IMG/VR virus record: IMGVR_UViG_3300035156_000038
Location: 1-21,725 of that record
Direction: 5' to 3' (one strand)
Source: a virus
Length of the DNA stretch: 21,725 nt
Part shown: positions 9,168 through 13,257 of the stretch, one piece after another
How positions within the stretch are numbered: position 1 is the first letter of the stretch
Layout of the letters: the number at the start of each line of letters is the position of its first letter
The notes under the pieces: model-generated
Seen by the model: only the letters and a program-made list of their open reading frames with translations
Database searches by the model: none
What the model was told of the DNA's origin: nothing
Program-made: the position numbers and the translations under genes

Positions 9168-9196
9168 TTGACAAAACACGGATCGTCGCTTATACT
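9168..9196 (+). promoter_or_regulatory. promoter of the first tRNA segment
   Basis: TTGACA (9168-9173), 17 bases, TATACT (9191-9196). Transcription would start near 9203 and read the 9203-9373 leader, tRNA-Thr and tRNA-Phe. Confidence 0.8.
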
Positions 9197-9202
9197 GTGA
9201 CC

Positions 9203-9373
9203 ACATGGAGATATTGGGGTATTTGATTCTCTTTCGAAAGGTAGGTGATCCTGTATTTTGTTTGGCTTCATGTAAAGTGTTCTCCTTGGGTCAGATGTGT
9301 GTGAAGCTGGTTACTTCATTGGGGTGGTTCCCGAGACACGACATCGCCGCAAACTGTAAGCGGCCAGAACATT
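9203..9373 (+). ncRNA. structured leader with GTTACTTC box, tRNA-mimic candidate
   Basis: This 170-base stretch lies between a strong promoter and tRNA-Thr and has no gene with a ribosome-binding site. It contains the box GAAG-CTGGTTA-CTTC (GTTACTTC at 9310-9317), shared with three other elements near the TROVE gene. It also holds a 5-bp GCCGC/GCGGC hairpin and a CTTTCGAAAG self-complementary hairpin. It may encode a small RNA or simply be a long tRNA leader. Confidence 0.4.
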
Positions 9374-9460
9374 GCTCCTTTCCCATAGTGGTTGATTGGA
9401 CTTGCCTTGTAAGCAAGCGGCGAAAGCCCAGCGTCCGTTCGAATCGGACAGGGAGCACCA
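9374..9460 (+). tRNA. tRNA-Thr (anticodon TGT) with long variable arm
   Basis: The acceptor GCTCCTT pairs fully with AGGGAGC, and CCA is encoded. The anticodon stem CTTGC/GCAAG is perfect around loop CTTGTAA. The T-arm is GTCCG/CGGAC with TTCGAAT. The variable region is 15 bases and contains a GGC-GAAA-GCC hairpin, which is unusual for a threonine tRNA (normally about 5 bases). A73 is present. Confidence 0.85.
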
Positions 9461-9462
9461 AA

Positions 9463-9539
9463 CCTTCTCAAGCTAATCAGGTTGAAAGCGACGGATTGAA
9501 AACCCGTAGAGCGTGGATCGTTACCACGGTGAAGGGCCA
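9463..9539 (+). tRNA. tRNA-Phe (anticodon GAA)
   Basis: The acceptor CCTTCTC/GTGAAGG has one mismatch, and CCA is encoded. The anticodon loop TTGAAAA has an A31:C39 mismatch below it. The T-arm CGTGG/CCACG carries the unusual loop ATCGTTA (A54, T58). It lies two bases after tRNA-Thr. Confidence 0.85.
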
Positions 9540-10795: not shown

Positions 10796-10800
10796 AGTTA

Positions 10801-10968
10801 CGCTGTGTTGATAGAATTCGGTTACTTCATACTTTGACTTTTAATCAAACCCATTGCCGAAAGGCAGTTACCGATTCGCCAGTTACCAGCAAATTTACGG
10901 CTTGCCGATATAAACCGATACTTCTTCGCTAATAGCCGATAACACCGAGGGGTGCGGCGTTTCTGTTT
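10801..10968 (+). ncRNA. tRNA-mimic / Y RNA candidate upstream of the TROVE gene (copy 1)
   Basis: The element contains TTACGC-T-GTGTTGAT and the box GAATTCGGTTACTTC (GTTACTTC at 10821-10828), shared with the next element. GAA(T)TCGG at 10814-10821 pairs with CCGATTC at 10871-10877, followed by GCCA. Inside are a 5-bp TTTGA/TCAAA arm with a 7-base loop CTTTTAA (anticodon-like TTT) and a TGCC-GAAA-GGCA hairpin where a T-arm would be. A GCCG...CGGC hairpin with GTTTCTGTTT (10935-10968) may terminate it. It is not a normal tRNA. Confidence 0.4.
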
Positions 10969-11084
10969 AGCCAGTTGCAGCCAGTTTTACGCAGTGTTGA
11001 TTGAAACAGTTACTTCTTACCTTTGCTAAAGAGAGTTCCGTTCGAATCGGATTAATCCACGGTGGACGACCATTTCTGTTTCGC

Positions 11085-11113
11085 TTGTTACCTGCTTATA
11101 TTTGTAGTAGAAT
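11085..11113 (+). promoter_or_regulatory. possible promoter of the TROVE gene
   Basis: TTGTTA (11085-11090), 17 bases, TAGAAT (11108-11113). The -10 is the same as that of the portal promoter. It abuts the terminator-like hairpin, so it could start a TROVE mRNA in which the hairpin's left arm is partly missing. Confidence 0.4.
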
Positions 11114-11168
11114 GCCCCTACCTCTGCCAGCTAGCCCAGAGCTAGTGAGCAAGTAGGGGCTTTTGTTT
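11114..11168 (+). terminator. intrinsic terminator before the TROVE gene
   Basis: GCCCCTAC (11114-11121) pairs perfectly with GTAGGGGC (11153-11160), enclosing a smaller CTCTG/CAGAG stem, and is followed by TTTTGTTTT. The same 8-bp stem sequence forms the terminator at 2195-2214. Confidence 0.75.
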
Positions 11169-11209
11169 TAACCACGCCCGTTAGGGTAAACCAACCAAGG
11201 AGATTGTAA

Positions 11210-12520
11210 ATGGCATCGACTAACAAAAAAGTAGCACAACCGCGTACCGCAACCACTCACGCTGGCCTAGCTGTTAAGCAGCTTGGGGCAAACGATAAGC
11301 TGGTGCGTCTGACGCTGGCACACATGCTGTTCGAAGGGCAGTTCTACGTGAACGGCCAAACATCGGCAACCCTGTTGCAATCAGCCGTGAAAGCCGCTGA
11401 CCCACGTTTCGTAGCTACGCTGGCAGAAACCGCCCGTACTGATTACAAACTGCGTCACGTGCCGCTCTACCTGATTCGTGAACTAATCCGCAATGGTGAC
11501 GCTACCGCTGCCGACATCGACAACGTGATTCGTCGCCCGGATGAAATGGGTGAACTGCTTTCGCTGTATAACAAGCCGAAGCGTCAACCGCTGTCGCATC
11601 AACTGAAGAAAGGTCTGCGTCAAGCATTTGGCCGCTTCAACGAATACTCGCTAGCCAAGTTCGACAAGAACTCCGCTGGTTACAGCATCCGTGATGTGAT
11701 GTTCATGGTACGCCCAAAGCCTGCCACGCCAGAACAGGAAGCCCTGTACAAGCGTATCGCAGACGGCACAATGGCAACCCCGGATACGTGGGAAACCGAA
11801 CTGTCGGCTGGTGCGGATAAGAAGGAAACGTTCGAACGCCTGATGGGCGAAAAGAAGTTGGGCGCTCTGGCGTTCCTGCGCAACCTGCGTAACATGGTGC
11901 AAGCTGGTATCTCCACTTCGGTGATTCGTGCTTACGCTGAAACGCTGGATGTCAAGAACGTCCTGCCATTCCGCTACATCGCCGCTGCACGTGTTGTACC
12001 GCAGTTCGAAGATATGCTGGAAGCTATGATGTTCCGTTCGCTGCAAGGCGTGGAGAAGATCAAGGGCAAGACGGTGTTGATGGTGGACGTTTCGGGTTCG
12101 ATGTTCGGTACGAAGGTATCGGCCAAGTCCGACCTTGACCGCTTCGATGCAGCAGCGGCCTTGGCTGTTCTGTGCCGTGAGATTTGCGAAGAAGTGGAAA
12201 TCTACTCCTTCAGCAATCAATCGAAGCTGGTAGCGCCTCGCCGTGGCTTTGCTCTGGTGGAAGCTATCCGTAACAGCCAGTCGCACGGCGGTACTGCGAT
12301 GGGACGTTCGTACGCTGAAATCTCGGCTAAGACTTCGTTTGACCGCATCATCTGCTTCACCGATGAGCAATCGAGCGACCGCCCAGCCAAGCCGAAGGGT
12401 AAAGGTTACATCATCAACGTTGCTAGCTACCAAAATGGCATCAACGAAGACGCATGGACTACCGTTACCGGGTTCTCGGAAGCGACTTTGGAATACATTA
12501 AGTTTGTCGAAAAGCTGTAA
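11210..12520 (+). CDS. rsr: TROVE-domain Ro60/Rsr orthologue, 436 aa
   Basis: This is a full-length Ro60-type protein. The N-terminal TROVE ring (about residues 15-270) contains the family-like stretches EYSLAKFDK (145-153), DVMFMVRPKP (162-171) and LGALAFLRNLRNM (217-229). The C-terminal von Willebrand A domain has a complete MIDAS: D293-x-S295-x-S297 in VDVSGSM, T362 in GGT, D385 in CFTDEQ. In animals and Deinococcus, Ro60 binds Y RNAs and misfolded RNA and, in bacteria, can be tethered by Y RNA to polynucleotide phosphorylase. Translation starts at ATG 11210 after AAGGAG. It sits between tRNA-Leu(TAG) and tRNA-Leu(CAA), with candidate Y RNAs on both sides. A role in tRNA or host RNA quality control is inferred. 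Confidence 0.92.
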   Translation: MASTNKKVAQPRTATTHAGLAVKQLGANDKLVRLTLAHMLFEGQFYVNGQTSATLLQSAVKAADPRFVATLAETARTDYKLRHVPLYLIRELIRNGDATAADIDNVIRRPDEMGELLSLYNKPKRQPLSHQLKKGLRQAFGRFNEYSLAKFDKNSAGYSIRDVMFMVRPKPATPEQEALYKRIADGTMATPDTWETELSAGADKKETFERLMGEKKLGALAFLRNLRNMVQAGISTSVIRAYAETLDVKNVLPFRYIAAARVVPQFEDMLEAMMFRSLQGVEKIKGKTVLMVDVSGSMFGTKVSAKSDLDRFDAAAALAVLCREICEEVEIYSFSNQSKLVAPRRGFALVEAIRNSQSHGGTAMGRSYAEISAKTSFDRIICFTDEQSSDRPAKPKGKGYIINVASYQNGINEDAWTTVTGFSEATLEYIKFVEKL

Positions 12521-12526
12521 AGCCTC

Positions 12527-12555
12527 TTGACAAGCAAGCTAGCTAGGTGTATAAT
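12527..12555 (+). promoter_or_regulatory. perfect consensus promoter after the TROVE gene
   Basis: TTGACA (12527-12532), exactly 17 bases ending GTG, then TATAAT (12550-12555). Both boxes match the sigma70 consensus at every base. It drives the 12562-12680 element and the following tRNAs. Confidence 0.9.
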
Positions 12556-12561
12556 CACTCC

Positions 12562-12680
12562 ACTTAGCTAGCAAAGACCTTACAAAAGGTCTTAACTATA
12601 ACTCTGGTGTTAGAATCGGTTACTTCTTCAACTGGTGAAAACAAAGCTCCGATTCGCCTTTTCCGGGTTATAGTTAAGAT
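12562..12680 (+). ncRNA. structured RNA bounded by a 12-bp inverted repeat, Y RNA candidate (copy 3)
   Basis: It begins at the expected start of the consensus promoter. A hairpin AAGACCTT-ACAA-AAGGTCTT (12575-12594) overlaps the start of a perfect 12-bp terminal stem, CTTAACTATAAC (near 12591-12602) with GTTATAGTTAAG (near 12667-12678). Inside, GAATCGG pairs perfectly with CCGATTC, and GAATCGGTTACTTC (box at 12619-12626) gives the shared D-arm-like hairpin. The closed rod with an internal tRNA-like box resembles Y RNA architecture. There is no coding potential. Confidence 0.5.
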
Positions 12681-12685
12681 TTTAT

Positions 12686-12768
12686 GTGCGTGTGGCTTAG
12701 GTAAATTGGCACAGCCACCCGGCTCAAAACCGGGGCTTTTGCTGGTTCGAATCCAGTCACGCATACCA
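12686..12768 (+). tRNA. tRNA-Leu (anticodon CAA) with short variable region
   Basis: The acceptor GTGCGTG/CACGCAT pairs fully (first pair G:U), and A73 and CCA are present. The anticodon stem CCCGG/CCGGG surrounds CTCAAAA. The variable region and T-arm (GCTTTT then GCTGG-TTCGAAT-CCAGT) are identical to those of tRNA-Leu(TAG), so the pair arose by duplication or recombination. Confidence 0.8.
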
Positions 12769-12867: not shown

Positions 12868-13257
12868 ATGCATACTAAAACTAAAGGAGACATCGCAGAG
12901 GCGATGGTAGCCGCACGGCTCCTACAAACAGGTGCGGCTGTACTAAAGCCGATGGGCGACAACCTGCGATACGATCTTGTAATTGACCGCGACGGGAAGT
13001 TCTACCGGGTTCAGTGCAAGATGGGTAAGTTGAAAGCTGGTAGTGTTCATTTCAGCACTTGTAGTAGTACCGCTAAGGAAAGCTACGAAGGGCAGATTGA
13101 ATACTTCGGCGTGTACTGCCCAGATAATGACGAATCCTACCTAATCCCGATTGAGGATTGCAAGGTAGGCCGTCAAAAGAGTTTGCGAGTGCAGGAAGCT
13201 AAGAACGGCCAAACAGCGGGTGTCACTTTAGCAGGGAAGTACAAACTGGGTCTATAA
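12868..13257 (+). CDS. PD-(D/E)XK homing endonuclease, I-Ssp6803I-like, 129 aa
   Basis: The N-terminus TKGDIAEAMVAARLLQTGA followed by NLRYDLVIDRDGKFYRVQCK is the restriction-fold homing-endonuclease pattern: E11, D36, and Q49-x-K51. This matches, as I recall it, the active-site layout of I-Ssp6803I, which is encoded in a group I intron of a cyanobacterial tRNA-fMet gene. Here the gene starts five bases after the CCA of tRNA-Met, with no ribosome-binding site and no visible intron. Its last ten bases are the first bases of tRNA-Lys. It is therefore likely a free-standing homing gene that uses the tRNA-Met locus. Confidence 0.8.
   Translation: MHTKTKGDIAEAMVAARLLQTGAAVLKPMGDNLRYDLVIDRDGKFYRVQCKMGKLKAGSVHFSTCSSTAKESYEGQIEYFGVYCPDNDESYLIPIEDCKVGRQKSLRVQEAKNGQTAGVTLAGKYKLGL

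What the first reader, a model, noticed from the sequence alone, without database searches (positions are those of the whole stretch)
10801..12680. Phage Ro60 (TROVE) system with repeated tRNA-mimic RNA candidates
Seen: a full-length TROVE protein with complete MIDAS residues lies inside a tRNA array. Four non-tRNA elements carry GAA-N(5-6)-GTTACTTC (GTTACTTC at 9310, 10821, 11009 and 12619), three of them immediately flanking the TROVE gene. Copies at 10801 and 10985 also share TTACGC-N-GTGTTGAT. In each copy GAA and TTC can close a small hairpin whose loop holds (C/T)(G/A)GTTA, like a tRNA D-arm. Known: bacterial and phage Ro60 genes are often accompanied by Y RNAs with a tRNA-like domain. 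Inference: this phage encodes a Ro60-Y RNA particle with several RNAs, possibly acting in phage tRNA maturation, host RNA decay or protection of RNA during infection.
Basis: partly seen in the sequence, partly recalled or inferred. Interest (0 to 1): 0.88.

Follow-up and report, generated by a model that had tools for sequence, protein, structure and literature searches.

The report
Phage Ro60 gene with four Y RNAs

Summary
The window holds a full-length phage Ro60 (TROVE) gene, 11210-12520, flanked by four Y RNA genes: YA 10799-10894, YB 10896-10986, YC 10988-11099 and YD 12591-12678. Covariance models built only from relatives find all four and nothing else in the 85.7-kb virus record apart from tRNA pieces and one weak, non-significant hit. 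Ro60 loci of diverse phages, and one archaeal virus, carry the same RNA: a terminal stem, a conserved internal loop, then a second stem ending in GTTACTTC, with strong compensatory change.

It was wrong about the fold: the bases before GTTACTTC pair far downstream, not within a small D-arm-like hairpin. It also missed YB, and the copy at 9310 is a different structured element.

Phage Ro60 with Y RNAs is published, so this is a new member of a known kind. Its own features are four short Y RNAs inside a tRNA array, one with a perfect promoter, and a decayed tRNA-like domain: only YC keeps a T-arm, while a close relative keeps the T- and D-arms. The role in infection is inferred.

The most novel observation lies outside the window: in crAss001 and other Ro60 phages, some Y RNAs are unpermuted tRNAs with the Ro60-type hairpin in the anticodon arm.

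The parts
11210..12520 (+). Ro60/TROVE protein, 436 aa (HEAT-type ring plus vWA domain)
   Evidence: Pfam TROVE PF05731 9.8e-12; 69-26% identity to 20 phage/virus Ro60 proteins; AlphaFold model pLDDT 80.5; best folds 9kop, 9l5y (Ro60 of Thermus phage phiLo), 1yvp, 2i91, 2nvo
10799..10894 (+). Y RNA 'YA': outer stem GCTG 10802-10805 / CAGC 10887-10890; inner stem GAATTCGG 10814-10821 / CCGATTC 10871-10877; TTACTTC 10822-10828
   Evidence: model R2, 26.1 bits, E 8.9e-8 in 2.2 kb, filters off; positional orthologue L001 3582-3673 with GGCG/CGCC and GAAGCAG/CTGCTTC
10896..10986 (+). Y RNA 'YB', degenerate: outer stem GGCT 10899-10902 / AGCC 10979-10982; inner stem TAAACCG 10911-10917 / CTGTTTA 10963-10969; ATACTTC 10918-10924
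10988..11099 (+). Y RNA 'YC': outer stem GCAG 10991-10994 / CTGC 11092-11095; inner stem GAAACAG 11003-11009 / CTGTTTC 11076-11082; T-arm TCCG-TTCGAAT-CGGA 11037-11051; D-arm and acceptor lost
   Evidence: model R2, 41.5 bits, E 3.7e-11 over 85.7 kb; orthologue L001 3810-3954 keeps T- and D-arm and matches Rfam YrlA at 2.4e-6
12591..12678 (+). Y RNA 'YD', short class: outer stem 12591-12604 / 12665-12678 (14 bp); inner stem GAATCGG 12613-12619 / CCGATTC 12649-12655; no tRNA-like domain
   Evidence: folding z -5.45; model R1 37 bits, E 4.6e-8; 14 of 21 pairs with two-sided change in 6 orthologues, 0 of 500 shuffles
12527..12555 (+). sigma-70-type promoter TTGACA-17-TATAAT just upstream of YD
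   Evidence: 12 of 12 consensus bases; a similar sequence lies upstream of the L001 YD
11114..11169 (+). terminator-like hairpin GCCCCTAC...GTAGGGGC plus TTTTGTTTT between the Y RNA cluster and the Ro60 gene
   Evidence: folding z -3.84; sequence

Best explanation
The region encodes a phage Ro60 ribonucleoprotein: one Ro60 ring protein and four Y RNAs. Shown by sequence comparison: each Y RNA has an outer stem, a conserved asymmetric internal loop (in relatives GGUGNNGUAG on one side, CGNYUGUUCC on the other), an inner stem ending in UUACUUC, and a variable cap. The cap of YC holds the remains of a tRNA-like domain. Inferred from known Ro60 particles: the conserved loop and stems bind the outer face of the Ro60 ring and control which RNA ends enter it, while the cap recruits partners. 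Inferred, with less certainty: during infection the particle handles damaged or structured RNA, most likely tRNA. It lies within the phage's own tRNA array, and the genome also encodes an RNA ligase. The PNPase-tethering role shown in Deinococcus is possible, but this phage has lost most of the tRNA-like module that is reported to bind PNPase.
For: Ro60 fold. Models built without window sequences find the four RNAs and no further Y RNA in the 85.7-kb record. Covariation over 40 relatives' cores: score 0.874 against 0.224 shuffled and at most 0.291 slid. Selection-controlled test: 30 of 62 motifs near Ro60 form both stems at score 30 or more, against 1.3% after shuffling; 62 motifs on the coding strand against 3 on the other; 1.85 per kb near Ro60 against 0.21 beyond 700 bases. 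YrlA hits in all six relatives scanned. R2 finds Y RNAs in the other Ro60 loci searched, crAss phages and an unseen 65% relative (L043) included. RNA ligase in the genome.
Against: No transcript, binding or infection data. Rfam YrlA does not hit the window at E 5 or below, and relatives score 32-43 bits, under the gathering score of 69. YB and YC do not fold well on their own. The search that filled the relatives' alignments required pairing, so the counts are inflated; one search is the control. RNA ligase was found in only one of four related virus records tested, so a fixed link with RNA repair is not supported.
Confidence: 0.85

Rival explanations
1. The elements are decayed tRNA genes or processing spacers in the tRNA array and not Y RNAs; the Ro60 neighbourhood is a coincidence.
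For: They lie in a tRNA array; YC holds a T-arm; parts of relatives' Y RNAs are annotated or predicted as tRNAs.
Against: Outer and inner stems, not the tRNA parts, carry the conservation and covariation; the motif tracks Ro60 and not tRNAs; YD has no tRNA part yet gives a strong match.
Confidence: 0.04
2. The RNAs are Y RNAs but serve as decoys or competitive inhibitors of host anticodon nucleases or of tRNA-modifying enzymes, sparing phage tRNAs.
For: tRNA-like domain in relatives; phage tRNA array and RNA ligase; a competitive-inhibitor role for YrlA has been suggested (PMC7790460).
Against: In this phage none of the four RNAs keeps a complete tRNA-like body, and the short class has none, so decoy action cannot be the common function.
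Confidence: 0.15
3. The Y RNA cluster upstream of the gene acts in cis, as a leader that Ro60 binds to regulate its own expression.
For: YA-YC lie just before the gene and are followed by a terminator-like hairpin.
Against: YD lies downstream with its own promoter; in crAss001 the copies found lie downstream of the gene; relatives place copies on either side.
Confidence: 0.08

Closest known systems
Bacterial Y RNA YrlA (Rfam RF02553; crystal structure 6CU1) with Rsr/Ro60
   Same: Y RNA beside a Ro60 gene; 5' and 3' ends form a long stem; tRNA-like cap in relatives (T-arm, closed acceptor, D-arm, circularly permuted); two classes, with and without the cap
   Different: In the window the cap is reduced to a T-arm in one of four copies; scores are below the Rfam cut-off; several tandem short copies lie in a tRNA array; no rtcBA operon alongside
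Deinococcus radiodurans Rsr-Y RNA-PNPase particle (RYPER)
   Same: Ro60 ring plus Y RNA
   Different: PNPase contact was not tested here and the module reported to make it is mostly missing in this phage
Ro60 of Thermus phage phiLo (9l5y; 9kop is an unnamed TROVE structure)
   Same: Phage Ro60 of similar size and fold
   Different: About 22-24% identity; described as a dimer; its Y RNAs were not examined here
Salmonella rsr-yrlBA-rtcBA operon
   Same: Ro60 with more than one Y RNA; link with RNA repair proposed
   Different: Chromosomal, RtcR-controlled; the phage has an ATP-grasp-type RNA ligase instead, far from the Ro60 gene

Membership tests
Ro60/Rsr (TROVE) protein | TROVE ring domain | tested here: met
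   PF05731 45.2 bits against cut-off 23; Foldseek to Ro60 structures, E down to 4.1e-20
Ro60/Rsr (TROVE) protein | C-terminal vWA domain with metal-site residues | tested here: met
   D293, S295, S297, D385 invariant in 21 proteins. PF25045 itself is below its cut-off (22.2 against 27.7)
Ro60/Rsr (TROVE) protein | binds Y RNA | not testable with these tools
   needs biochemistry
Bacterial Y RNA (broad) | encoded next to Ro60 | tested here: met
   four copies within 420 bases of the gene
Bacterial Y RNA (broad) | 5' and 3' ends form a stem with a conserved Ro60-binding internal loop | tested here: met
   covariation; models R1 and R2 hit the window
YrlA (RF02553) | score over the Rfam gathering cut-off | tested here: not met
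   no hit in the window at E 5 or below; orthologues 32-43 bits against 69
YrlA (RF02553) | complete tRNA-like domain (D-arm, T-arm, acceptor) | tested here: not met
   YC keeps a T-arm only; D- and T-arms intact in L001. The window RNAs are therefore filed as Y RNAs, not as YrlA proper
RYPER | Y RNA tethers Ro60 to PNPase | not testable with these tools
   needs biochemistry

The most novel reading that the evidence does not exclude
Y RNAs are tRNAs re-used as Ro60 guides, and phages preserve the intermediate forms. In crAss001 (two copies), cr106_1, another crAss-like contig (L046) and two related non-crAss contigs (L010, L049), an RNA next to Ro60 has a complete, unpermuted tRNA body whose anticodon arm carries the Ro60-type Y hairpin. 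Circular permutation of such an RNA gives the known YrlA form, and loss of the tRNA body gives the short Y RNAs that dominate in this window. If the unpermuted form is new and is matured like a tRNA, Ro60 would be loaded on a real tRNA body with free acceptor ends.
Probability: 0.5. Interest if true: 0.72.

Novelty: new member of a known kind. Interest (0 to 1): 0.5.

Why it matters
Phage Ro60 genes are often annotated as hypothetical or merely RNA-binding, and their RNA partners are mostly unannotated or mislabelled as tRNAs. The alignment and models here show that several Y RNAs per phage are the rule, across hosts from Caulobacter to Bacteroides and in one archaeal virus. They split into a class with a tRNA-like cap and a short class. 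In this phage the tRNA-like cap has nearly gone, which makes it a natural test of whether that cap, reported to contact PNPase, is needed. The unpermuted tRNA-Y forms in the cultured phage crAss001 make the origin of Y RNAs testable at the bench.

Tried and rejected
Small D-arm-like hairpin as the fold of the three copies beside Ro60: rejected, the partner of the inner stem lies downstream.

The 9310 copy as a Y RNA, permuted or unpermuted: rejected. The reverse-order pairing TTGGCTTC/GAAGCTGG looked good in the window, but L001 shows a different conserved hairpin there, folding gives z 0.08, and R2 does not hit it.

Pattern search for relatives of the 9204-9375 element: 12 hits, of which only L031 (the L001 contig) is real.

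L042 hit to the YA pattern: no Ro60 found on the contig and no R2 match, taken as chance.

MAFFT on full-length short Y RNAs lost the 3' half, so cores were aligned instead.

The original papers on bacterial Y RNAs (Chen 2014, Sim and Wolin 2018 and 2020, Wang 2018) are not held. What I say of Chen 2014, Y RNAs near Ro60 in bacteria and phages, rests on citing papers and memory.

Full report
WHAT WAS CHECKED. GTTACTTC occurs four times in the window, at the stated places and all on the + strand, against 0.62 expected. The TROVE ORF at 11210-12520 lies in a tRNA array. It matches Pfam TROVE and has the vWA metal-site residues. An AlphaFold model (pLDDT 80.5) has only TROVE/Ro60 structures among its 13 best Foldseek matches, the first three including the Ro60 of Thermus phage phiLo, followed by the Xenopus, human and Deinococcus proteins. 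The window lies in an 85,725-base virus record; its large terminase is nearest to Pseudomonas phages, at about 41% identity.

WHAT THE RNAs ARE. Thirteen virus contigs with a related Ro60, eleven annotated phage records and one further contig (L043) were compared. Nearly all with enough flank carry the same element near the gene. It has an outer stem; a 5' loop of the type TGGTG(T/A)AG; an inner stem of 7-8 pairs; TTACTTC; a cap; the other inner strand; a 3' loop of the type CGCYTGTTCC; and the other outer strand. Across 40 cores from relatives the paired fraction is 86.5%, with a covariation score of 0.874 against 0.224 for shuffles and at most 0.291 for slid partners. Because the cores were chosen partly by pairing, a control was run that keeps each motif and shuffles what follows. 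At a pairing score of 30 or more, 30 of 62 real motifs near Ro60 pass, against 1.3% of shuffled ones. The motif is strand-specific (62 against 3) and nine times denser near Ro60 than further away. Rfam, an independent source, calls YrlA in six of six relatives scanned (best E 2.4e-6), though below its gathering score.

THE FOUR COPIES IN THE WINDOW. Models built only from relatives were used. R1 finds 12598-12671 (E 4.6e-8 over the record). R2 finds 10988-11099 (E 3.7e-11) and 12598-12672 (E 8.5e-8); its other hits over the record are tRNA fragments and one or two weak, non-significant hits, the best at E 0.41 in L026. With filters off around the gene, R2 also gives full-length matches at 10799-10894 (26.1 bits) and 10896-10986 (19.5 bits, the weakest). 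Orthologues of YD in five other contigs show 14 of 21 pairs with two-sided change. YD has a 12-of-12 sigma-70-type promoter 35 bases upstream and folds with z -5.45. YC contains a T-arm, but the D-arm and acceptor that its L001 orthologue would lead one to expect are missing. A terminator-like hairpin lies between YC and the gene.

The proposed GAA...TTC mini-hairpin is not the fold of the three copies beside the gene. The copy at 9310 belongs to a separate element, 9204-9375, with its own promoter. There the mini-hairpin does show a compensatory change in L001.

HOW IT PROBABLY WORKS. Shown: the anatomy, its conservation and its link with Ro60. From the literature (PMC8394870): the basal stem of YrlA holds the Ro60 homologue and the tRNA-like domain binds PNPase, biasing it to structured RNA. 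Inferred: in this phage the four RNAs are ligands and gates of the Ro60 ring, acting on tRNA or other structured RNA during infection. An RNA ligase elsewhere in the genome and the tRNA array fit an RNA-repair setting, proposed before for phage TROVE proteins (PMC7824862). But only one of four related records tested has such a ligase. In crAss001 the TROVE gene is among those expressed 0-10 min after infection (PMC8375218).

NOVELTY. Y RNAs in phages have been reported (PMC7765460), and the circular permutation of YrlA relative to tRNA is known (PMC11472068). The window is therefore a new member of a known kind; its own traits are four tandem or flanking copies and a nearly lost tRNA-like cap.

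OUTSIDE THE WINDOW. A search for the reverse arrangement, a tRNA acceptor stem enclosing a Y hairpin in the anticodon-arm position, gave six clear cases (L010, L019 twice, L023, L046, L049), one weaker hit in L004 without a D-arm motif, and none in 360 shuffled loci. Two of them match the Rfam tRNA model over its full length, at 46.6 and 49 bits against a cut-off of 29. Acceptor and T-arm pairs are kept in 100% of cells with many two-sided changes. They are unannotated in the crAss001 record. I found no mention of such forms in the papers I could read, but the key papers were not available.

Noticed in passing
L019 4657-4799 and 4912-5049 (crAss001); L023 4502-4642; L046 4077-4205; L010 2847-2993; L049 3211-3356: Unpermuted tRNA bodies with a Ro60-type Y hairpin in the anticodon arm, beside Ro60; two pass the Rfam tRNA cut-off, and acceptor and T-arm pairs covary. 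A further candidate lies at L049 7097-7225.
   Followed up: partly
window 9204-9375: Conserved structured element (about 170 nt) of unknown kind at the start of the tRNA array, with an 11-of-12 promoter upstream at 9168-9196; homologue in L001 2090-2260 with a compensatory change in the GAAG/CTTC hairpin. No Rfam match. Only one relative was found.
   Followed up: partly
L015 2828-2895, L017 2173-2240, L021 2811-2885: tRNA genes annotated next to phage Ro60 (Thr, Gln, Ser) lie inside predicted Y RNAs; they are probably the tRNA-like domain mislabelled.
   Followed up: partly
L022 2768-2865 (Halogranum tailed virus 1): An archaeal virus has a Y-like element, GGGAGTCGG-ATACTTC...CCGACTTCC, just upstream of its Ro60 gene.
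   Followed up: no
L007 2066-2195: A Y RNA whose cap holds a D-arm, an anticodon arm (GAA) and a T-arm in normal tRNA order but without a clear acceptor stem.
   Followed up: no
L028 12203-13378 (-); L027 1971-3602 (-) and 4466-5293 (-): The same genome encodes an RNA ligase (PF09414), and a nicotinamide phosphoribosyltransferase with a PRPP-synthetase-like protein, possibly an NAD-restoring pair.
   Followed up: no
window 12868-13257: A PD-(D/E)XK endonuclease (PF11645, E 6e-36) sits between tRNA genes in the array, possibly a mobile or homing-type insertion.
   Followed up: no
window 9463-9536 and 12698-12757: tRNA genes that ARAGORN does not report but Rfam does (35.9 and 25.4 bits; the second is below the cut-off), so the array is larger than ARAGORN shows.
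   Followed up: no
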